Shown: positions 52,763 to 64,000 of the stretch, in pieces | Layout of the letters: each line of letters opens with the position of its first letter | Numbering within the stretch: position 1 is the stretch's first letter | Origin: Thermodesulfobacteriota bacterium | GTDB taxonomy: Bacteria > Desulfobacterota > Syntrophorhabdia > Syntrophorhabdales > JANXAF01 | Assembly: GCA_025062045.1 (NCBI GenBank) | Contig: JANXAF010000001.1 | Coordinates: forward strand, 62,001-126,000 | Direction of reading: 5' to 3' | DNA: 64,000 nucleotides | Translations under genes and position numbers: made by a program | Notes under the pieces: model-generated | What the model was told of the DNA's origin: nothing | The model's database searches: none | What the model saw: the letters and a program-made list of their open reading frames with translations, nothing else

Positions 52763-55093
52763 CTACTTTTCCTCCTTTTTTTCCTTCTCTTTCAAAGCCT
52801 TAAGGATCCTTTCCGGAGTGAATGGCAGCTCTTTAAGCTGGATTCCCAGGGCGTGGAAAATGGCATTTCCAAGCGCAGCAGCGGTTGGGTTGGTCAAGCC
52901 CTCACCAGCTTCTTTGGCCCCGTACGGGCCTTCTGCCTCGTAAGTATCTATTTCGATCATCCCTGTCTTTGGCATATCGGCAGCCCTTATAACTTTGTAG
53001 TCCACAAGGTTAGGGTTCAGAATCTTTCCCTCTTCCATGGGCTGATCTTCAAGATACCCGTATCCTAAGGCCATAGCCGCAGCCCCTTCTAGCTGTCCCA
53101 AAAGCCCCAAAGGATTTATAGGCTGGCCGCAGTCATGGGCAGTCATTACTTCGTGAATCTTTATCTTTCCAGTTTCAGGATCAACCTCAGCATCAACAGC
53201 CTGCATCATGTAACTATAGGCAGGAGATATCATTCCTTTCCTTCTGGGCGTGTAGTAACCACGACCGATTATCCTCTGTCCGTCCTTTGCCCTGATGGCC
53301 TTCTTTACGAGATCCTCGTATTTCATTCCCCTTTCAGGTCTAGCAATTACGTGAACCCATCTGTCCTTTATGTCCAAGTCATAGACTATGTTTAGGCCCA
53401 TCTCTGCGTAGGCGTACTCAAGTAACTGCCTCTTTGCGTCTTCGGCTGCCATCTTTACCGCGTTTCCAGCCATAAGTGTCTGACGGGATCCCCACGCACC
53501 CAAATCAGGCGGACAAATACCAGTATCTCCTGAGAAGACACGCACATCCTCCACTTTTACCCCCAAAGTTTCGGCGCAGATCATGGCTAATGTGGTGTTT
53601 GAACCTTGCCCAATGTCCTGAGCCCCAACATAGAGATCCACAGTTCCGTCATAGTTTATAACTACAACTGCGGAGGAAAAGGAGTAAGGCGTGTCAAACC
53701 AGTTAAATATACCTCCGGACATGAAACCAGCAGCCGATATCCCGATTGCCCGGTTTGGACCTAAATCTCCCTTCGATTTGACCCACTCTTCTATCTTGTC
53801 TATACACTGAACCATGCCACAACTTTGAATATAGGCTTGACCTGGCACTTCGTAACATTCGGTGTGCGCATTCTTCCTTCTCACCTCAAAAGGATCGAGG
53901 CCTAAATCCTTGCACATCCATTCAATCTGTTGTTCGGAACAGAACATGGCTTGAGGAGCACCAAAACCTCTCATTGCGGTTGAAGGGATCGTATTTGTGT
54001 ATACTCTAAAACCATCGTATCTATAAGCTTTCCATTTATAAGGGAAGGAGCAGAAAAAGCCTGTTAAGTAAAGCGCGGTGGCACCCATTCCCGTATAAGC
54101 CCCACCGTTTGTAAAGACGCGGACCTCCCTTGCCAAAAAAGTTCCGTCTTTTTTCATCGCTGTTCTTATGTAATAGTACATGGGAGTCCTTCTTTTGGAT
54201 GCTATAAAATCTTCCTCTCTGGTAAACACTATCTTTACAGGTCTGCAGACCTTCTTTGAAAGTACAGCGCTACAGAAAATCGCGGCATCAAGCTCGAACT
54301 TTCCACCAAAACCTCCACCTACGTACTGTGCAATGACCCTCACATCGCCTTCCCTTAAGCCCAAAACCCATGCAAGAAGAGCCTGCATGTAATAAGGCGC
54401 TTGGGTCGAACACCAAACTGTAAGTTTTCCGTCTGGTGTGTAACTCGCCACAGCCGCTCTCGTCTCCATACACATGTGATGCTGACTCGATGTCCTAAAC
54501 CAGTCCTCCCTTATGTAACCGTCTCTTTCGGCCTCAGCAAAAGCTTCCTCCACGTCTCCCCACTCTATATGTCTAGTTACGTTAATGTTCCTTTCCACAC
54601 CTTCGTGGATTTCTGGTGCGTCTTTCCTTATAGCCTCCATGGGAGTAAAAACGGCTGGTAACACCTCGTATTCCACTTCTATCAACTCCAATGCCTTCTC
54701 AGCTATCTCTTCGGTCACTGCACAAACTGCCGCAACTGGTTCCCCAATATACCTTACCTTTTCCAATGGAAGGATCTGTTCGTCACAAAGTTCTTTATAC
54801 CTTCTCCATATACCCTGCTTTATCCCCAAAGTGTCCTGACCCGTTGCAACAGCCATGACACCGGGAAGTTCCAGCGCCTTAGAATAGTCGATCTTTTTTA
54901 TTTTAGCATGGGGATAAGGGCTTCTTAGGATTTTCCCGTAAAGCATATTCGGCAGTTTTATATCCGATGCGTACTGGGCCCTCCCCGTAACCTTAGCGTA
55001 ACCATCGATATTGCGCGTCTTGTGGTTGATAACCGAGTATTTTACGCCCGGTTTAAAGACAGAGTACTTTATGTCTCTTGCTTCATGGCTCAT
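52763..55093 (-). CDS. xanthine dehydrogenase-family molybdopterin-binding subunit
   Basis: The 776-residue catalytic subunit of a molybdenum hydroxylase. Pterin/Mo-site motifs are VGGGFGGKFELDA, TAMRGFGAPQAMFC, GQDIGQGSNTTLAM and, near the C-terminus, EGPYGAKEAGEGL with the catalytic Glu of GxxE. The CO dehydrogenase loop (VAYRCSF) is absent, so it is not a CODH; it belongs to the broad xanthine/nicotinate/aldehyde group, which hydroxylates N-heterocycles or aldehydes. Operon order: 71-residue Cys protein, FAD subunit, 2Fe-2S subunit, this gene, zinc finger, CoxG. SD GGAGGG lies upstream. Confidence 0.93.
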   Translation of the reverse strand: MSHEARDIKYSVFKPGVKYSVINHKTRNIDGYAKVTGRAQYASDIKLPNMLYGKILRSPYPHAKIKKIDYSKALELPGVMAVATGQDTLGIKQGIWRRYKELCDEQILPLEKVRYIGEPVAAVCAVTEEIAEKALELIEVEYEVLPAVFTPMEAIRKDAPEIHEGVERNINVTRHIEWGDVEEAFAEAERDGYIREDWFRTSSQHHMCMETRAAVASYTPDGKLTVWCSTQAPYYMQALLAWVLGLREGDVRVIAQYVGGGFGGKFELDAAIFCSAVLSKKVCRPVKIVFTREEDFIASKRRTPMYYYIRTAMKKDGTFLAREVRVFTNGGAYTGMGATALYLTGFFCSFPYKWKAYRYDGFRVYTNTIPSTAMRGFGAPQAMFCSEQQIEWMCKDLGLDPFEVRRKNAHTECYEVPGQAYIQSCGMVQCIDKIEEWVKSKGDLGPNRAIGISAAGFMSGGIFNWFDTPYSFSSAVVVINYDGTVDLYVGAQDIGQGSNTTLAMICAETLGVKVEDVRVFSGDTGICPPDLGAWGSRQTLMAGNAVKMAAEDAKRQLLEYAYAEMGLNIVYDLDIKDRWVHVIARPERGMKYEDLVKKAIRAKDGQRIIGRGYYTPRRKGMISPAYSYMMQAVDAEVDPETGKIKIHEVMTAHDCGQPINPLGLLGQLEGAAAMALGYGYLEDQPMEEGKILNPNLVDYKVIRAADMPKTGMIEIDTYEAEGPYGAKEAGEGLTNPTAAALGNAIFHALGIQLKELPFTPERILKALKEKEKKEEK

Positions 55094-55094
55094 A

Positions 55095-55580
55095 TTAGCC
55101 CTCCTTGTATTCTCCCCTTGAGACTGCCTGAATAGCTCTGATAATGCTATTATATCCCGTACATCTACATATGTTTCCGTCTATTCCTTCTCTAATCTCC
55201 TCCTCTGTGAGCACCCTTCCTTCGTTTTCTTTAAGCAGCGCAGTGGCCGACATTAACATTCCCGGTGTGCAGAACCCGCACTGAAATGCTCCGTAGTCAA
55301 GGAAAGCCTCCTGAATGGGACTTAGCTTTCCGTTCTTCTCTAAGCCTTCAACCGTCGTGATATTCATGCCTTCCACTTGAACTGCAAGCACGGAACAAGA
55401 TTTTACAGCCATGCCATCCACTAAAACTGTGCAAGCACCACAAGAGCCGCTTTCACATCCTTTTTTCGTTCCTGTCAAACCGATGTGATCCCTTATTGCA
55501 TCGACAAGAAGTGTCTTTGGATTTATAAAAAGCTCGTATTCAAGGCCGTTCACCTTCAAGTGGACAATTTTCTTCTCCAT
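55095..55580 (-). CDS. 2Fe-2S subunit of the molybdenum hydroxylase
   Basis: A 161-residue small subunit with two [2Fe-2S] clusters: the plant-ferredoxin-type GCESGSCGACTVLVDG with a fourth Cys in KSCSVL, and the alpha-helical CGFCTPGMLMSATALL plus GNICRCTGY. It relays electrons from the Mo site to FAD. It lies between the FAD and Mo subunits, 1 nt from the latter, with SD GGAGGG. The length matches CoxS/HcrC-type proteins. Confidence 0.95.
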   Translation of the reverse strand: MEKKIVHLKVNGLEYELFINPKTLLVDAIRDHIGLTGTKKGCESGSCGACTVLVDGMAVKSCSVLAVQVEGMNITTVEGLEKNGKLSPIQEAFLDYGAFQCGFCTPGMLMSATALLKENEGRVLTEEEIREGIDGNICRCTGYNSIIRAIQAVSRGEYKEG

Positions 55581-55590
55581 AATCCCTCCT

Positions 55591-56457
55591 CTATTTTACA
55601 GCCTTATAGGCAGAGGCAAGCATCCTTCTCGTCAAGACTGCTACAAGGTGTCTTCTAAATTCCTCCGAACCATAAATGTCGGAAACAGGCTCACACTCAG
55701 AAGAAGCCAAGGCCCCTGCTTTTTCGAAGAGTTTCTCGTTGTATTTCTCTCCTTTGACTGATTCTTCCGCTTTTTTTGCCCGAATCGGGACTCTCCCTGC
55801 ATTTGCTAAGCAGATCTTGGCATCTTTTATCGTCCCATCATCCATAAGGGTAACCTTGCAGGCTACTCCAACTATAGCCATGTCATTTTTTAGAAGGTTG
55901 AACTTGTAATACACACATGCACTTTTCGGTTCAGGTGGAGGAACCCTTATCTCCTTTAGAAGCTCATTCTCTTTAAGCTCAGTAGTGAAATAATCTACAA
56001 AGAAATCTTCAAGAGGCATCTTTCTTTCTCCGTTAACGCTGGTCATCGTGACCTCTGCTCCTAATGTAATCAAAACGGGCGCAGGATCTCCCGCAGGATC
56101 AGCATGGGCAAGATTTCCGCCTATAGTCCCCCAGTTTCTCGTTTGGATGGAGGCTAAATTCCTCTCCATCTCCACAAGGACCGGATAGTACTTCTTTACC
56201 GTTTCAGATTTTTCTATTGTTCTGTGAGTCGTTGTAGCACCTATAGAGAGTCCCTCTTTCTCATCGAAGGTTATGTAGTCCAACTCCTTGAGGTGCTTTA
56301 TGTCGATCAAATATTCTGGTCTAACCATCCCTTGTCTCATAAGGATTAGCAGCGACTGGCCTCCGCATATTATTTTGCATGCCTCTCCGTATTCAGCGAG
56401 CATTGAGAGAGCTTCACCTAGAGATGCGGGTTTCAAATAATGAAAATCGTGTATCAT
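55591..56457 (-). CDS. FAD-binding subunit of the molybdenum hydroxylase
   Basis: The 288-residue CoxM-type medium subunit. FAD contacts appear as KIICGGQSLLILM (residues about 28-40), RNWGTIGGNLAHADPAGDPAP, and a CO dehydrogenase flavoprotein C-terminal domain (VRIPIRAKKAEESVKG region). The extra 4Fe-4S insertion of 4-hydroxybenzoyl-CoA reductase HcrB is absent, so this is not a classic HcrABC. It starts with an ATGA overlap with the small Cys protein and ends 10 nt before the 2Fe-2S gene. Confidence 0.94.
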   Translation of the reverse strand: MIHDFHYLKPASLGEALSMLAEYGEACKIICGGQSLLILMRQGMVRPEYLIDIKHLKELDYITFDEKEGLSIGATTTHRTIEKSETVKKYYPVLVEMERNLASIQTRNWGTIGGNLAHADPAGDPAPVLITLGAEVTMTSVNGERKMPLEDFFVDYFTTELKENELLKEIRVPPPEPKSACVYYKFNLLKNDMAIVGVACKVTLMDDGTIKDAKICLANAGRVPIRAKKAEESVKGEKYNEKLFEKAGALASSECEPVSDIYGSEEFRRHLVAVLTRRMLASAYKAVK

Positions 56458-56826: not shown

Positions 56827-56855
56827 TTGACAAGGGCCGGAAACGAAGGTATAAA
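56827..56855 (+). promoter_or_regulatory. promoter of the attenuated trpB2-ior operon
   Basis: TTGACA (56827-56832), 17-nt spacer, TATAAA (56850-56855). Predicted start about 56862, 2 nt before the leader peptide ATG. Confidence 0.75.
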
Positions 56856-56863
56856 ATGATTAT

Positions 56864-56926
56864 ATGACCAGTAAGCAAGCTATAATTAGATCCTGGATAT
56901 GGTGGAGAAGGGTTAGTGTGGTGTGA
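56864..56926 (+). CDS. tryptophan-rich attenuator leader peptide
   Basis: A 20-codon ORF, too short for standard gene calling. It begins MTSKQAIIRS and has three Trp codons at positions 11, 13 and 14 (TGG at 56894, 56900 and 56903), then two Arg codons, and stops at TGA 56924-56926. The stop lies inside the first arm of the downstream hairpin, as expected for ribosome-controlled attenuation. The peptide probably has no function beyond sensing charged tRNA-Trp. The ATG is about 2 nt from the predicted transcription start, so it would be translated from a leaderless mRNA. Confidence 0.8.
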   Translation: MTSKQAIIRSWIWWRRVSVV

Positions 56927-57014
56927 AGCCGCCTAATATAAGCCATGGGCGGCTTCGCACCGCCCATGGCTTATCTGGGGCCATGGGTTCATAACCCATG
57001 GCCCTTTTATTTTT
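56920..57014 (+). promoter_or_regulatory. transcription attenuator with competing hairpins and terminator
   Basis: Arm 1 (56920-56933) pairs with arm 2 (56948-56961) over 14 positions with one G-U. Arm 2 also belongs to the left strand of a 15-bp hairpin (56938-56952 with 56960-56974). The right strand of that hairpin can instead pair with 56980-56987. The last alternative is the terminator: GGGCCATGGGTT (56978-56989), loop CAT, AACCCATGGCCC (56993-57004), then TTTTATTTTT. The pairings are mutually exclusive, the logic of the trp attenuator. The rest of 56670-57028 holds the two promoters and the tandem palindromes. Confidence 0.8.
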
Positions 57015-57028
57015 GTGGGGAGGTCCGG

Positions 57029-58387
57029 ATGGTAAAGAAGATCATTTTATCTGACAGTGAGATTCCAAGGTTTTGGTACAACATTCAGGGAGATCTTAAA
57101 AAACCCCTTCCTTCTCCGCTCGATCCCCAAACTAAGAAACCCATAGACCCAGAAACGCTTTTCCGCATATTTCCGGCTAATCTCGTAGAACAGGAGATGA
57201 GTACACAAAGATGGATAAAGATACCGGACGAGGTTATAGAAAAACTTGCAATCTGGAGACCTACCCCTCTTTACAGGGCATACTCTCTTGAAAGATTTCT
57301 TGGAACGCCGGCAAGGATTTACTATAAGAACGAAAGTGTAAGCCCCTCTGGAAGCCACAAGCCTAATACAGCAATCGCGCAAGCTTACTATAACAAGGTC
57401 TTCGGAACAAAAAGGTTAACTACGGAAACAGGCGCGGGACAATGGGGGAGTGCTCTGGCTTTCGCATGTAATCAGTTTGGGCTCGAATTAAAAGTCTACA
57501 TGGTAAGAGTTAGTTACAATCAGAAACCTTATAGGCGGATGCTCATCGAGGCATACGGAGGGAAATGTGTGCCAAGCCCAAGTATGGATACTGAGATAGG
57601 CAAAAGTTACTGTCAAAAAGATCCGGACCATCCCGGAAGCCTGGGTATCGCTATAAGTGAAGCAATAGAGGATGCTATGACCTCTGAAAAGACAAAATAC
57701 TCTTTAGGTAGCGTCCTAAATCACGTTCTCCTCCACCAAACGATAATAGGGCTTGAGGCAAAAAAACAACTCGAATCGATAAAAGAATACCCAGATATTG
57801 TGATAGGATGCGTTGGAGGGGGGAGCAATTTTGCCGGACTTTCGTTTCCTTTTCTATTCGACAAGATAAACGGAAAGGAAGTAAAGGTCATAGCATGCGA
57901 ACCCGCATCCTGTCCTACCTTAACCAAAGGTCATTATGTCTACGATTTCGGAGACAGCGCAGGAGTAACACCTCTTCTGCCAATGCATTCCATAGGCCAC
58001 AAGTTTGTACCTCCACCAATACACGCAGGTGGGCTGAGATACCATGGAATGGCACCACTTGTAAGCTTACTTGTGAAAGAAGGCCTAATTGAGGCAAGAT
58101 CTTACAGTCAGACTGCCACATTTTCGGCAGGTTTAGTATTCGCTAGAACCGAAGGTTTCATTCCTGCGCCAGAGACCAACCATGCTTTAGCCTGTGTGAT
58201 AGAAGAGGCAAAAAAGGCAAAAGACGCAAAGGAAGAAAAGGTGATCCTTGTGAACTTTAGCGGACACGGGATTCTGGATCTTCTAGCTTATGAATCCTAC
58301 ATCCTTGGGAAACTCGAAGATTATTCTCTCTCTCAGGAAGAGATAGACTTGCTCCTTCATGATCTTAGAGAATTTCCGAGGCCGTGA
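57029..58387 (+). CDS. trpB2: tryptophan synthase beta-like protein TrpB2
   Basis: A 452-residue PLP enzyme that condenses indole with serine (or O-phosphoserine) to tryptophan. PLP-binding Lys111 is in [24 protein letters not shown] and the phosphate-binding [11 protein letters not shown] follow. The long N-terminus (about 80 residues before [12 protein letters not shown]) and overall length mark the TrpB2 subgroup, which does not need TrpA; no trpA, trpB1 or other trp gene is in the window. The frame is open to 56945, but that stretch is the attenuator; the ATG at 57029 follows SD GGGGAGG. It is the first structural gene of the attenuated operon. Confidence 0.93.
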
Positions 58388-59510: not shown

Positions 59511-60740
59511 ATGTTTAAAGATATAGTGCAGCTACTCATAGAAGAAGGTATTGAATTCATTTACACCTCTAGAAAAGCTCTTCCTCTCCTAGAAGTACCT
59601 TTTTGCCACCCTAAAGTACACATAGAAACGGTTATTAACGAAAAAGTTGCCTATGAGTTTGCTCTTTCTGCAAGCATAGTAAAAAAAAGATCGTGTTTTA
59701 TAACTGGTACCCGTGAGTTATGTGAAGCCCTAGATCCCATTATGAGCTCAGCTTATATGGGCGTACTTGGACCGCTGCTCATCGTGGCAGTCCGTGACCA
59801 AGACCATGACTTTGCTTTTCTTGGTCCCTTTTCAAAGCTACCTCTCATTGTAGAGGGAAGAAGTGAAAAATTCAGAGATGCGATAAGCTTCGGGATGTAT
59901 ATTTCAGAGAAGTTTGAGATCCCTGTAATTGTGGAACTCGATGTACTTTATTTGGACAAACTTTGCCCGATCTCAAAAACTGGCTCAATGGTCCAAACGA
60001 CAGGTTCTTTTGAATTCCACAAAAACCCTTCAAGATGGGCGGCAACTCCTAGTTTTAGATATAAACTCCATAAGATTCTCAATGAAAAAATAAAGTCAAT
60101 AAGGGAAGAGTTCGAAAACTACCAAGGAAATGAGATAAGACTAAAAGGTACTACTGGTTTCATCTCGTATAGACAGAGTGCCCTTTCTTTCTTTTTCGAG
60201 GACTTTAGCACGCTTTATCTCTCAACCGTCCATCCTCTGCCTTTAAAGCTCGTCTCGAGATTTTTAGAAGATGTGGATGAGGCCTTCGTTCTTTCGGATC
60301 CCCATTCTGTCATTGAGTACCAAATATGTGACTTTAAGGAAAAGATAAAACCCTTTGACTATCAAAACAGTATTAAAAAAAATATCCACGGCAAAGCTGA
60401 AACGATCTTCGGTTACGAGGTAGTAAGGGATACATTGGGTCCTGCATCATCGATAAACATGGCCCACGGAATAAAAAAGACCAATCCCGAAAGAAGGATC
60501 CTAGCCATCACATACGAAGACCATTTCTTTCACTCAGGAATTCCAGCCTTCATAAATACGTTGTACAATGATTCGCATTACCACCTTTTGATCCTTGCAA
60601 AAAATAGGGTCTCGGACCTTAAAGTCTTCATGGAAGGGATCGGATTTAAGGATTACTACACGGTGGAGAAACTGGAGGATCTCAAAGAGTATTTGACAAA
60701 GGATGGGCTTACGGTCTTCATAATGGAAGGAAGTATATGA
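59511..60740 (+). CDS. degenerate IorA-like protein
   Basis: A 409-residue protein that aligns by eye with IorA but lacks its catalytic and cluster features. Its N-terminal domain keeps ETVINEKVAYEFAL, matching the Glu-containing EWSVNERVAYEVAY of the intact IorA downstream. In the C-terminal domain the TPP/Mg motif GDSTFFHACLPAI is replaced by YEDHFFHSGIPAF (about residue 335) and the downstream Asn ligand is lost; the CSGCPH segment and the C-terminal ferredoxin domain are absent. It is intact as a reading frame, overlaps iorB by ATGA, and follows the aminotransferase after 11 nt, so it looks like a maintained pseudoenzyme or partner subunit rather than a decaying copy. Confidence 0.75.
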   Translation: MFKDIVQLLIEEGIEFIYTSRKALPLLEVPFCHPKVHIETVINEKVAYEFALSASIVKKRSCFITGTRELCEALDPIMSSAYMGVLGPLLIVAVRDQDHDFAFLGPFSKLPLIVEGRSEKFRDAISFGMYISEKFEIPVIVELDVLYLDKLCPISKTGSMVQTTGSFEFHKNPSRWAATPSFRYKLHKILNEKIKSIREEFENYQGNEIRLKGTTGFISYRQSALSFFFEDFSTLYLSTVHPLPLKLVSRFLEDVDEAFVLSDPHSVIEYQICDFKEKIKPFDYQNSIKKNIHGKAETIFGYEVVRDTLGPASSINMAHGIKKTNPERRILAITYEDHFFHSGIPAFINTLYNDSHYHLLILAKNRVSDLKVFMEGIGFKDYYTVEKLEDLKEYLTKDGLTVFIMEGSI

Positions 60741-61312
60741 GATCTAAAGGATTATCCATCGAGATTATATGCGCCGGGATTGGGGGTCGGGGAGTACTTT
60801 TAGCCTCAACTCTCCTTATAGACTCGGCTGTAAGGAAGAACGTCTATGCAATAGGATCGGATGAATACGGGATGAGTCAAAGAGGGGGTTCTGTCATATC
60901 CCAGGTCAAAATAGGTAATGTGAAGAGCCCGATTGTTGGAAAGGGGCGTGCCGACATACTTTTGGGTTTTGAAGAGAGCGAATTTTTGAGGAACGTTTCT
61001 TACTTGAAAAAGAAGGGCATAGGGATAGTAAACACCAATAAATCTGAGATTGATCGGAAAGTAACGGATGCTTTAAAAGAGAGAAGTGTAAGGCTCTACC
61101 TTTTGGATGCGGACGAAATAGCAAGGAGAGAGGGTCTTTTTCTGGCATCAAACATGGCCGTTCTCGGTTTTCTCTCATCTTTGGGAATAGAACCATTAAC
61201 TTACGAAAACCTCAAAGAAGCCATAATTTATAGGCTCCAGGGGAAAATGTTGGAGGGGAACCTTAAAGTATTTGAGAATGGTTACAGAAAAGGATTGGAG
61301 ATTTTAAAATGA
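60737..61312 (+). CDS. iorB: indolepyruvate:ferredoxin oxidoreductase beta subunit
   Basis: The 191-residue gamma-type (POR gamma domain) subunit of IOR. The glycine-rich start IICAGIGGRGVLLASTLL, YGMSQRGGSVISQVKIG and GRADILLGFEESEFLRN are typical of IorB. With IorA it oxidatively decarboxylates aryl pyruvates to aryl-acetyl-CoA with ferredoxin, or runs in reverse. It overlaps both neighbours by ATGA, so three genes are translationally coupled. Confidence 0.93.
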   Translation: MRSKGLSIEIICAGIGGRGVLLASTLLIDSAVRKNVYAIGSDEYGMSQRGGSVISQVKIGNVKSPIVGKGRADILLGFEESEFLRNVSYLKKKGIGIVNTNKSEIDRKVTDALKERSVRLYLLDADEIARREGLFLASNMAVLGFLSSLGIEPLTYENLKEAIIYRLQGKMLEGNLKVFENGYRKGLEILK

Positions 61313-63033
61313 ACGAGTTGATGATAGGCAATTATGCGATTGCGAGGGGATTCGTTGAAGCCGGGCTAGAGATAGCCGCAGCGTATCCGGGAACACCGAG
61401 CTCTGAGATACTGCCAGGAATAGTAGAATTTTCAAAAAGGGAAAATGCAGAAATACATTGTGAATGGTCAGTAAACGAAAGGGTCGCTTATGAAGTTGCA
61501 TACGGTGCGGCGCTTTATGGAAAAAAGGCGGCATGTATGATGAAGCAGGTAGGTTTGAACGTTGCATTCCCAGCCTTTTACAATTTTAAACACCACGAGA
61601 TAAAAGGATCGTTCGTTATTGTCTCCTGCGATGATCCGGGTCCCCAGTCATCCCAAACCGAGCAGGACACAAGGATGCTATGTACTTTCATGGACGTTAC
61701 GTGCTTTGATCCTTCTAGCCCTAAAGAGGCAGCCGATGTGGCGTATTTTGCTCTTCGCCTGTCTTTTGAGACTAAAAGACCGATAGTTATAAGACCAACC
61801 CACAGGGTGAGCCACTCGAGAGAGGCCGTCCCCCTCTATAGACCGGGAAAAAGAAGGGTAAGATTAAAGGAAGGGTTAATCAGCAAAGGAAAGACCGCCA
61901 AATTAGGTATTGTCGCATCTGGTATGTCATTTTCGGTCGCAATTGATGTTCTAACCGAGCTCAACCTCATAAGAATGATTCCAGTCTATAAGGTACTTAG
62001 AGTCCATCCTTTGGACACAAAAGTAAAGGAATTCGCACAAAGCTTACAAAAGGTCTTAATCCTTGAAGAGACTGACGCGGTGATTGAGGCTAAGCTTAAC
62101 GATTCAAAAAGAGTCTACGGAAGGCTAAACGGTTTTTTAAGTGGTGCAGGAGAATTAACCTACGATGTAATAAAAGAGGCTATTACAAGTTTATGCAGGG
62201 ATTCGGGAATTGAAGTACAAAATGAGATCGATTATGCGTTGGAAGATCTAAGTAAAACTATTAACATAGTTCCAAGACCTCCCAAGCTTTGCAGCGGATG
62301 TCCACACAGGGCCTGTTTTTATGCAATGAGGGAGGCTTTTCCGGAAGCCATATTTCCTGGAGACATAGGTTGTTATACACTTGGAATCCCGCTTGGGGCT
62401 GTGGATACGGTTGTGGATATGGGTGGAAGTGTGAGTTTGGCCTCTGGCTTTTACAACGTTTTCTCAAAGGAAAATCGGAATATTCCTATCCTCGCTTCCT
62501 TAGGCGACTCCACATTCTTCCACGCCTGCCTTCCCGCAATATACGATGCCAGAAAAAAGAATAAGAAGTTTATTTTAGTGATTCTCGATAACGGCACAAC
62601 GGCCATGACAGGTATGCAGCCAACACCGCAGACTGGGATCACCGCAAAAGGAGAAAAAAGTAGATCAATAAGTATTGAGGCTACTTTGCGAGCTTTAGGA
62701 ATCGAAAACATACGTATTGTCGACCCGTATGATATTCCTTTTGTAATCAATACCATAAAAGAAGCCCATCACCACCTCCAAAAGGGAGAGGGTCCTTTCG
62801 CGATAATTTCAAGGAGGGAATGTCTCCTCCTTTCAAAGAGAAGATTTGAAGTGAAGATAGACCTTGAAGAAGTCTGCACTGGCTGTAAAAGATGTATAAG
62901 GTACTTCGATTGCCCTTCTTTGGAGTTCGACGAGAAAGAAAAGAAAGTGAAAATAAACCGGGATCTTTGCGTACAGTGCGGAAATTGCTTATATGTCTGT
63001 CCCGCAAAAAGAAAGAGGCTTGATAGCCTTTGA
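61309..63033 (+). CDS. iorA: indolepyruvate:ferredoxin oxidoreductase alpha subunit
   Basis: The 574-residue catalytic subunit. The N-terminal pyrimidine domain includes AAYPGTPSSEILPGI and catalytic Glu in SVNERVAYEV; the TPP domain has CSGCPHRACFYAM (from residue 328) and GDSTFFHA (from residue 399) with ILDNGTTAMTGMQPTPQTG; the C-terminal ferredoxin domain has CTGCKRCIRYFDCPS (from about residue 523) and CVQCGNCLYVCPAK. The first cluster motif has a longer final gap than the usual CxxCxxCxxxC, as common in IorA. It starts by ATGA overlap with iorB. The glycosyltransferase gene overlaps its stop. Confidence 0.96.
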   Translation: MNELMIGNYAIARGFVEAGLEIAAAYPGTPSSEILPGIVEFSKRENAEIHCEWSVNERVAYEVAYGAALYGKKAACMMKQVGLNVAFPAFYNFKHHEIKGSFVIVSCDDPGPQSSQTEQDTRMLCTFMDVTCFDPSSPKEAADVAYFALRLSFETKRPIVIRPTHRVSHSREAVPLYRPGKRRVRLKEGLISKGKTAKLGIVASGMSFSVAIDVLTELNLIRMIPVYKVLRVHPLDTKVKEFAQSLQKVLILEETDAVIEAKLNDSKRVYGRLNGFLSGAGELTYDVIKEAITSLCRDSGIEVQNEIDYALEDLSKTINIVPRPPKLCSGCPHRACFYAMREAFPEAIFPGDIGCYTLGIPLGAVDTVVDMGGSVSLASGFYNVFSKENRNIPILASLGDSTFFHACLPAIYDARKKNKKFILVILDNGTTAMTGMQPTPQTGITAKGEKSRSISIEATLRALGIENIRIVDPYDIPFVINTIKEAHHHLQKGEGPFAIISRRECLLLSKRRFEVKIDLEEVCTGCKRCIRYFDCPSLEFDEKEKKVKINRDLCVQCGNCLYVCPAKRKRLDSL

Positions 63034-64000
63034 ACCCACAAGGAACCATATCGGTTCTTGTAGTCACAAAGGATACGCCAAATCTTCTATCAAGGCTCAT
63101 AACATCGATACTAGAGGACAGAGAGCTCTTTTCTGAAATAAGAGAATTGATCGTTGTGGATAACGGTAGCGATTTAGAAACCGAAGAAATCGTAAAAAGG
63201 TTTAGCATCGGAATAAAATACCTGCGACAAAATAGAAATCTCGGATTCGCCAAGGCTGTAAATTTAGGTGCCTCCATATCTACTGGCAAGTACTTGCTTC
63301 TTCTTAATTCCGACATCCTTTTGCCTAAAGGAGAGATCTTAAAGCTAAAAAAAGTTATGGATTCATATCCGAATATCGCGGTATCCGGTCCGTCCCTTAT
63401 ATATCCTGACGGTTCATTCCAACGCTCTTACTCCCATGTCCCGTCCCTTCTTGTCGAAATAGTTCCTCGTTTCGTCTATGAGGCTCTATTTACAAATAGG
63501 AGTAGAAAACTGATCCATTCTGATCCCTTATTAGGACAGATTTTTGAAGTAGAATCCCTAATAGGTGCCTGCCTTATGATAAGGAGGAGCACATTTGAAA
63601 GACTCGGTGGGTTCGATGAAAGGTTTTTCTTCTTCTTCGAGGAGACCGATTTTTGCTTGCGAGTAAAAAAGATTGAAGGATCTTGTGTTTTTGTCCCTTC
63701 TTGCAAGGTCATTCACGACCAGGGGATGACAGTAAGAAAGGTTTGGGTTTTAGGAAGGCTAGAGTACAATATTTCTCTTCTTAAATTCATCCGGAAACAC
63801 TATCCCGTTTGGTACTCAAATACATTCGTTTTTGTTAGGTTTTTAAAGACTCTACTCGGAACGCTTCTACTTTTGGGTTTTTTTCCAGTTACGTTCCTTT
63901 CAGAAAAAAGAAAAAGGATCCTCAGTTACTACCTTCGTACTCTTTTTTGGTTTTTAAAAGGTCTCCCAGACGACTACGGTTTAAAGAGCTTAATTTTCAA
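63030..64000 (+). CDS. family 2 glycosyltransferase, 3' end outside the window
   Basis: An open frame of at least 323 codons from TTG 63030 (TTGA overlap with the iorA stop; in-frame TAG at 63024-63026). It has the GT-A fold pattern of family 2 transferases: SVLVVTKDTPNLLSRL, LIVVDNGSDLETEE, NRNLGFAKAVNLGAS, LLLNSDI (the DxD-like metal site as NSD), GACLMIRRSTFERLGGFD and FFEETDFCLRVK. Two hydrophobic segments follow near the C-terminus. It resembles rhamnosyltransferase-like cell-surface polysaccharide enzymes. Its link to the upstream operon is probably only transcriptional; it may instead head a surface polysaccharide locus continuing to the right. Confidence 0.9.
   Translation, partial: MNPQGTISVLVVTKDTPNLLSRLITSILEDRELFSEIRELIVVDNGSDLETEEIVKRFSIGIKYLRQNRNLGFAKAVNLGASISTGKYLLLLNSDILLPKGEILKLKKVMDSYPNIAVSGPSLIYPDGSFQRSYSHVPSLLVEIVPRFVYEALFTNRSRKLIHSDPLLGQIFEVESLIGACLMIRRSTFERLGGFDERFFFFFEETDFCLRVKKIEGSCVFVPSCKVIHDQGMTVRKVWVLGRLEYNISLLKFIRKHYPVWYSNTFVFVRFLKTLLGTLLLLGFFPVTFLSEKRKRILSYYLRTLFWFLKGLPDDYGLKSLIF

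What the first reader, a model, noticed from the sequence alone, without database searches (positions are those of the whole stretch)
56827..57028. Tryptophan attenuator in front of an orphan trpB2-aminotransferase-IOR operon
A TTGACA-N17-TATAAA promoter is followed by a 20-codon leader ORF with Trp codons 11, 13 and 14, a stop codon inside hairpin arm 1, three successively overlapping pairings and a perfect 12-bp terminator with a T-run, then the SD of trpB2. This is the full set of parts of a ribosome-mediated trp attenuator. Known trp attenuators precede trpE-type biosynthetic operons; here it controls TrpB2 and an indolepyruvate oxidoreductase. I know of no described case.
Basis: partly seen in the sequence, partly recalled or inferred. 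Interest (0 to 1): 0.88.

Follow-up and report, generated by a model that had tools for sequence, protein, structure and literature searches.

The report
Tryptophan attenuator on a salvage operon
A short RNA switch in which a translating ribosome measures tryptophan sits in front of trpB2, aminotransferase and indolepyruvate-oxidoreductase genes across a whole bacterial order, most of whose genomes lack the usual tryptophan pathway, so these genes are probably how such bacteria refill tryptophan from scavenged indole compounds.

Summary
It is not chance: a covariance model built without the window or its family finds it at E=1.4e-18; 33 of 39 trpB2 genes in the order (named contigs are Syntrophorhabdaceae) carry it; the 1:2 and terminator helices covary (0/500 shuffles). 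Nascent-RNA folding flips sharply between read-through and termination, at a point lying between the ribosome's positions on the Trp codons and on the stop codon. It is canonical ribosome-mediated attenuation (E. coli trpL geometry) with two coupled terminators, absent from Rfam.

New are the targets (trpB2-aminotransferase-IOR, aminotransferase-IOR without trpB2, a TRAP importer), with sister Phe/Tyr leaders. Of 37 near-complete genomes 22 lack trpE, trpC and trpA; 20 of these keep trpB2 and/or the IOR-operon gene, 18 with a strong Trp-type leader. This supports an anabolic, salvage role for IOR. Trp response, enzyme direction and substrate remain untested. Other Desulfobacterota carry Trp leaders before orphan trpB2 and trpE, so the regulatory principle is ordinary; the target and the inferred pathway are not.

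The parts
56827..56855 (+). promoter TTGACA-N17-TATAAA
   Evidence: read; a TTGACA-type -35 recurs at the same spacing in the relatives' leaders
56864..56926 (+). leader ORF MTSKQAIIRSWIWWRRVSVV*, Trp codons 11, 13, 14; 5'UTR only a few nt
   Evidence: 26 aligned order members have leaders of 14-23 codons with 3-4 Trp codons just before the stop
56918..56935 (+). arm 1 (5' arm of the antiterminator, overlaps the stop codon)
   Evidence: fold; 1:2 covariation (97.9% paired, 6 pairs with compensatory changes, 0/500 shuffles)
56946..56963 (+). arm 2 (3' arm of 1:2), overlapping the 5' arm of hairpin 2:3
56938..56974 (+). hairpin 2:3 (T1, 15 bp); an intrinsic terminator in most relatives, here without a U-run
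56962..56988 (+). helix 3:4 (11 bp), the lock that keeps arm 4 from forming T2
   Evidence: (99.1% paired, little covariation)
56978..57014 (+). terminator T2 (4:5), 12 bp plus U-run
57017..57023 (+). Shine-Dalgarno GGGGAGG of trpB2
57029..58387 (+). trpB2 (TrpB-like PLP enzyme)
   Evidence: NF009057 730 bits, TIGR01415 675 bits
58384..59499 (+). class I aminotransferase, GTG start
   Evidence: PF00155
59511..60740 (+). IorX: degenerate IOR-alpha-like subunit without the 4Fe-4S domain
   Evidence: only a partial TIGR03336 match; 21-24% identity to IorA in pieces; kept across the order
60737..61312 (+). iorB
   Evidence: PF01558; NCBIfam indolepyruvate oxidoreductase beta models, below their cut-offs
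61309..63033 (+). iorA
   Evidence: TIGR03336 522 bits, below the 650.9 cut-off
63030..63998 (+). family 2 glycosyltransferase overlapping iorA, conserved last gene of the cluster; runs past the window end

Best explanation
A ribosome-mediated transcription attenuator that switches on trpB2-aminotransferase-iorX-iorB-iorA when charged tRNA-Trp is scarce. RNA starts 2-5 nt before the leader AUG and is translated at once. When Trp is low the ribosome stalls on Trp codons 11-14; its front edge ends before arm 1, so arm 1 pairs with arm 2 as the RNA emerges, arm 3 is left free to pair with arm 4, terminator 4:5 is pre-empted and polymerase reads on. When Trp is ample the ribosome reaches the stop codon and covers arm 1; 2:3 forms, arm 4 is released, T2 forms and transcription ends. 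Hence Trp represses the operon, and the enzymes are read as anabolic: TrpB2 (indole to Trp), and IOR run reductively plus the aminotransferase (indoleacetyl-CoA to indolepyruvate to Trp). SHOWN from sequence: parts, conservation, covariation, exclusive pairings, spacing, targets, absence of trpE/C/A in most of the order. INFERRED: start site, Trp response, kinetic preference, IOR direction and substrate. The confidence given is for the Trp attenuator; for the salvage reading of the genes it is about 0.65.
For: Leader with 3-4 Trp codons before trpB2 throughout the order. Independent model. Covariation of 1:2 and T1+T2, 0/500 shuffles, slid controls far lower. In all 26 sequences the transcript up to arm 4 with arm 1 free gives mean P(1:2)=0.98, P(T1)=0.00, P(3:4)=0.94; with arm 1 masked P(T1)=0.98, P(T2)=0.95. 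In the window the flip is between first free nt 56924 and 56926; assuming a ribosome front edge about 13 nt past the A-site's first base, a stall at Trp14 frees bases from ~56917 and a ribosome at the stop frees bases from ~56938. Same spacing as E. coli trpL. Same layout with Phe/Tyr codons before an aminotransferase pair and Phe/Tyr/Trp codons before DAHP synthase. Trp leaders sit directly on aminotransferase-IOR operons without trpB2 (L195, L198, L199, L226) and on a DctP-DctQ-DctM TRAP importer. 22 of 37 near-complete genomes lack trpE, trpC and trpA; 20 of the 22 keep TrpB2 and/or IorX, 18 with a strong Trp-type leader. IOR in methanogens is described as assimilating indoleacetate by reductive carboxylation (PMC6737245).
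Against: No expression data. At full-length equilibrium T2 wins whether arm 1 is free or not (P=0.97 in the window), and just past T1 with arm 1 free T1 beats 1:2 (0.91 against 0.06), so the switch must be kinetic. 3:4 has almost no covariation. G001, same family, keeps only one Trp codon; some trpB2 copies (G003, G007, second copy in G033) have no leader. The window's own genome has a complete trp operon without a Trp leader. No CoA ligase was recognised in the operon or the TRAP operon. 10 of 14 genomes with trpE and trpC also keep TrpB2, so salvage is not simply a replacement.
Confidence: 0.85

Rival explanations
1. Trp attenuator as above, but IOR is not a salvage enzyme: TrpB2 is the regulated biosynthetic enzyme and the aminotransferase-IOR genes are catabolic or fermentative passengers.
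For: IOR is known as an oxidative enzyme of peptide fermentation (PMC6737245); orphan trpB2 alone, without IOR, carries Trp leaders elsewhere in the phylum; no CoA ligase recognised in the cluster.
Against: Trp leaders also sit directly on aminotransferase-IOR operons that lack trpB2; IorX is present in most genomes of the order, including 18 of 22 without trpE/C/A; making a Trp-degrading enzyme only when Trp is scarce is hard to rationalise.
Confidence: 0.25
2. Inducible TnaC-like arrest: free Trp stalls the ribosome near the stop codon and induces a catabolic operon.
For: Trp-containing leader peptide before genes that could degrade Trp.
Against: A ribosome held at the stop masks arm 1 and gives the terminated state, i.e. 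repression; intrinsic terminators rather than a Rho region; leader residues outside the Trp codons are not conserved across the order, and the same chassis works with Phe/Tyr codons.
Confidence: 0.03
3. Only a tandem terminator of upstream transcription, the mini-ORF and helix 1:2 being incidental.
For: T1 and T2 hairpins alone score with the model on both strands; Trp clusters occur by chance.
Against: The gene upstream (55591-56457) is divergent, so no incoming transcript needs ending; promoter, ORF, codons and 1:2 covariation are conserved; codon identity tracks the downstream gene.
Confidence: 0.02

Closest known systems
E. coli trpL-trpE attenuator (ribosome-mediated transcription attenuation)
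   Same: Short leader peptide with Trp codons shortly before the stop (last Trp 6-21 nt before it here, 12 in E. coli), antiterminator 5' arm 11-17 nt after the last Trp codon (17 in E. coli), mutually exclusive antiterminator and intrinsic terminator.
   Different: No clear protector hairpin ahead of the antiterminator, a second terminator coupled through 3:4, near-leaderless ORF, targets trpB2-AT-IOR instead of trpE; no Rfam match.
Sinorhizobium meliloti trpLE(G) attenuator / rnTrpL
   Same: Ribosome-mediated Trp attenuator whose RNA starts at the leader AUG, so the leader ORF is leaderless (PMC7298713).
   Different: Controls trpE(G); no tandem coupled terminator mentioned in the text read.
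Trp attenuators of Actinobacteria, including trpB2A of Corynebacterium diphtheriae
   Same: Attenuators with runs of UGG; one precedes an operon named trpB2A (PMC1262725).
   Different: There trpB2A is called a biosynthetic operon with trpA; here trpB2 is TIGR01415/NF009057 type without trpA and with IOR genes.
Trp, Phe/Tyr and mixed leaders of other Desulfobacterota (found here)
   Same: Leader peptide plus tandem terminators before trpE, DAHP synthase, ADH synthase or orphan trpB2.
   Different: In the leader-bearing loci inspected outside the order, trpB2 is not followed by AT-IOR.
Indoleacetate/phenylacetate assimilation through IOR in methanogens
   Same: IOR used anabolically, as proposed here (PMC6737245 citing Tersteegen 1997 and Porat).
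   Different: Archaea; phenylacetyl-CoA ligase present; no Trp attenuator mentioned in the text read.

Membership tests
ribosome-mediated amino-acid attenuator | leader ORF with clustered codons of the regulated amino acid | tested here: met
   3 Trp codons in 4 (window); 3-4 Trp codons in 26 aligned leaders
ribosome-mediated amino-acid attenuator | mutually exclusive antiterminator and intrinsic terminator | tested here: met
ribosome-mediated amino-acid attenuator | spacing that lets ribosome position choose the structure | tested here: met
   last Trp codon to antiterminator arm 11-17 nt in 25 of 26 (the motif was mis-located in L057), 17 in E. coli; flip at 56924-56926
ribosome-mediated amino-acid attenuator | conserved in front of orthologous operons | tested here: met
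   33 of 39 trpB2 genes; independent model
ribosome-mediated amino-acid attenuator | read-through rises when the cognate charged tRNA falls | not testable with these tools
   needs a reporter or RNA-seq
E. coli-type trp leader (segments 1:2:3:4) | protector/pause hairpin formed by the Trp-codon segment | tested here: inconclusive
   only a weak small hairpin over arm 1 in the consensus fold
Rfam families incl. Trp_leader | match to the family model | tested here: not met
   no family at gathering in the window, and only a tRNA in 15 related loci; no Trp_leader hit up to E=10
T-box riboswitch | T-box covariance model | tested here: not met
TrpB2 (TrpB-like) | above curated NCBIfam cut-off | tested here: met
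   NF009057 730.5 (cut-off 366), TIGR01415 675.5 (518.85)
indolepyruvate:ferredoxin oxidoreductase | above curated cut-offs for alpha and beta | tested here: not met
   IOR models are the best matches for both subunits, but alpha scores 522 of 650.9 and beta (TIGR03334) 123 of 205.8: IOR-like, substrate not proven

The most novel reading that the evidence does not exclude
In most of this bacterial order the only tryptophan made in the cell comes from salvage: a TRAP importer brings in an indole acid, an IOR with a degenerate extra subunit carboxylates it reductively, an aminotransferase and TrpB2 finish Trp, and all these transcription units are switched by one family of tandem-terminator Trp attenuators.
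Probability: 0.4. Interest if true: 0.85.

Novelty: new variant of a known kind. Interest (0 to 1): 0.68.

Why it matters
The direction in which indolepyruvate oxidoreductase runs in uncultured anaerobes is usually undecidable from the genome. A Trp attenuator in front of it is a physiological label: it says the operon is wanted when Trp is short. Together with the loss of trpE, trpC and trpA in most near-complete genomes of the order, it makes a specific, testable proposal for how these syntrophs obtain tryptophan, and gives TrpB2 a regulated role. The lock between two successive terminators is also a simple way to tighten an attenuator, with a clear prediction (no translation means read-through) that differs from E. 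coli.

Tried and rejected
Rfam searches of the window and 15 related loci: no attenuator family; the best sub-threshold match is RF02871 ncS54 (35.5 bits, gathering 43), not pursued. Chance Trp cluster: a real risk alone (3 other mini-ORFs), rejected by comparative evidence. TnaC-like induction and plain terminator: see rivals. A Trp leader on the genome's own trp operon: looked for, none; in the order 7 of 17 trpE genes do have a WWW leader of another type. A CoA ligase in the operon or TRAP operon: none recognised. Nitrospirota trpB2 (about 70% identical): no leader in the sequence available up to 350 nt upstream. Literature: ten searches of the open-access library found no Trp attenuator on trpB2-IOR or in this order; subscription surveys of attenuators (Vitreschak 2004; Merino and Yanofsky) were not read.

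Full report
OBSERVATION. There are four chained helices: 1:2 (18 bp), 2:3 (15 bp), 3:4 (11 bp) and 4:5 (12 bp plus U-run). The leader folds 5.5 sd below dinucleotide shuffles. With TATAAA as the -10, RNA should start near 56862, two bases before the AUG; relatives show a similar promoter-to-AUG spacing, so the leader ORF is leaderless or nearly so. This is inference from promoter spacing.

OPERON. trpB2 (NF009057, above cut-off), class I aminotransferase, an IOR-alpha-like protein without the ferredoxin domain (IorX), iorB, iorA, then a family 2 glycosyltransferase. The IOR subunits fall below NCBIfam's equivalog cut-offs, so 'indolepyruvate' is the best family, not a proven substrate. Relatives have the same gene order, in one large family usually with a small cysteine-containing gene after trpB2.

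RELATIVES. The window's genome is G000 (1.76 Mb, 97% complete). Contigs of same-order genomes coincide in length and position with named records of Syntrophorhabdaceae/Syntrophorhabdus, so the order is taken to be Syntrophorhabdales. A TrpB-type match was found in 54 of 60 relatives. Upstream of trpB2 lies an ORF of 14-23 codons ending in WWWW, WIWW, WAWWW or the like, then the same helices. In 26 aligned leaders 1:2 is paired in 97.9% of cells with 6 compensatory pairs, and T1+T2 in 95.3% with 9; 0 of 500 shuffles reach these, and sliding the partner by 1-3 columns gives 19-49% pairing. 3:4 is paired in 99.1% but its arm 4 is nearly invariant, so covariation says little. Model R1 matches all 46 genomes of the order; 33 of 39 trpB2 genes have a strong match within 700 nt upstream. 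Because R1 contains the window, R2 was built from the large sister family only; it finds the window at 76.9 bits, E = 1.4e-18.

MECHANISM. The last Trp codon lies 11-17 nt before arm 1 in 25 of 26 leaders (the motif was mis-located in L057) and 6-21 nt before the stop; in E. coli trpL the figures are 17 and 12. Arm 1 here therefore corresponds to E. coli segment 2, and 1:2 is the antiterminator. Folding nascent transcripts: with arm 1 free and RNA made up to arm 4, 1:2 plus 3:4 form (mean 0.98 and 0.94) and T1 does not (0.00); with arm 1 masked, T1 (0.98) and T2 (0.95) form. In the window the outcome flips when the first free base moves from 56924 to 56926. With a ribosome front edge about 13 nt beyond the A site's first base (general knowledge), a ribosome at Trp14 leaves bases from about 56917 free and one at the stop leaves bases from about 56938, on opposite sides of the flip. 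Caveat: at equilibrium the full RNA forms T2 either way, and just past T1 the free-arm RNA prefers T1; the switch has to be kinetic. In most relatives T1 also has a U-run and should be a terminator; in the window it has lost the U-run but kept a perfect 15-bp stem, which fits a role in freeing arm 4.

REGULON. In the same genome, 14 kb past the window, a second copy has the leader MERVVKLSGFYFYFRNWHP* before two tandem aminotransferases. Across the order: Trp leaders precede trpB2, aminotransferase-IOR operons without trpB2, and a DctP-DctQ-DctM TRAP transporter; Phe/Tyr leaders precede the aminotransferase pair; mixed Tyr/Trp/Phe leaders precede DAHP synthase; runs of Tyr precede another aminotransferase. 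The codons follow the downstream gene, which is the strongest sign that they are the sensor. Elsewhere in the phylum similar tandem-terminator leaders precede trpE, DAHP synthase, ADH synthase and orphan trpB2.

PATHWAY. trpE was found in 17 of 46, trpC in 16 and trpA in 15 genomes of the order; all three families were found in all 14 control genomes. Of 37 near-complete genomes 22 have none of the three; at a 10% chance of losing an operon from an assembly this has probability 2e-13. Of the 22, 19 have TrpB2, 18 have IorX and 18 have a strong Trp-type leader match; two have neither protein. The window's genome keeps a full trp operon, preceded by no Trp leader. A Trp-repressed operon of TrpB2, aminotransferase and IOR in bacteria without trpE/C/A is best read as Trp salvage. 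IOR running reductively from indoleacetate is described for methanogens (PMC6737245). No CoA ligase was recognised nearby, a gap in the proposal.

COMPARISON AND NOVELTY. It works like, and belongs to, ribosome-mediated attenuation on the sequence features that could be tested; the transcriptional response could not be, and an E. coli-type protector hairpin was inconclusive. It matches no Rfam family. Leaderless trpL has a precedent in Sinorhizobium and an attenuator before a trpB2A operon in Corynebacterium. I found no described Trp attenuator on an IOR operon or a TRAP importer in the open-access library; the classical subscription surveys were not read. Verdict: new variant of a known kind, with a new target that carries a metabolic prediction.

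Noticed in passing
G000:C1:139963-140070 (L155 1453-1608), outside the window: Phe/Tyr-type attenuator (MERVVKLSGFYFYFRNWHP*) with the same layout before two tandem class I aminotransferases.
   Followed up: partly
46 genomes of the order: trpE, trpC and trpA absent together from 22 of 37 near-complete genomes; G013 keeps only a truncated trpE open frame (176 aa).
   Followed up: yes
window 59511-60740: IorX, a degenerate IOR-alpha-like subunit without ferredoxin domain and no Pfam match, kept in most genomes of the order: an unusual three-subunit IOR.
   Followed up: partly
L188-L194, L196, L197, L254: TRAP transporter (DctP-DctQ-DctM) under a WAWWW-type leader; substrate unknown, perhaps an indole acid.
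   Followed up: partly
L203, L214, L218, L220: Leaders with 6-8 consecutive Tyr codons before another class I aminotransferase.
   Followed up: no
L230-L250: Tandem-terminator leaders with aromatic codons before trpE, DAHP synthase and ADH synthase elsewhere in the phylum; attenuators not catalogued in Rfam.
   Followed up: partly
L048 2576-2815 and equivalents: About 80-aa cysteine-containing protein after trpB2 (MEIYCxQLG...), no Pfam or NCBIfam match; similar short proteins follow trpB2 in other Desulfobacterota.
   Followed up: partly
window 63030-63998: Family 2 glycosyltransferase usually following iorA in the cluster; no obvious link to Trp.
   Followed up: no
window 56934-57012: Sub-threshold match to Rfam RF02871 ncS54, a Burkholderia sRNA (35.5 bits, gathering 43); perhaps also an attenuator-derived RNA.
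   Followed up: no
window 52763-56457 (minus strand): Divergent molybdopterin-dehydrogenase-type operon shares the intergenic region with the attenuator.
   Followed up: no
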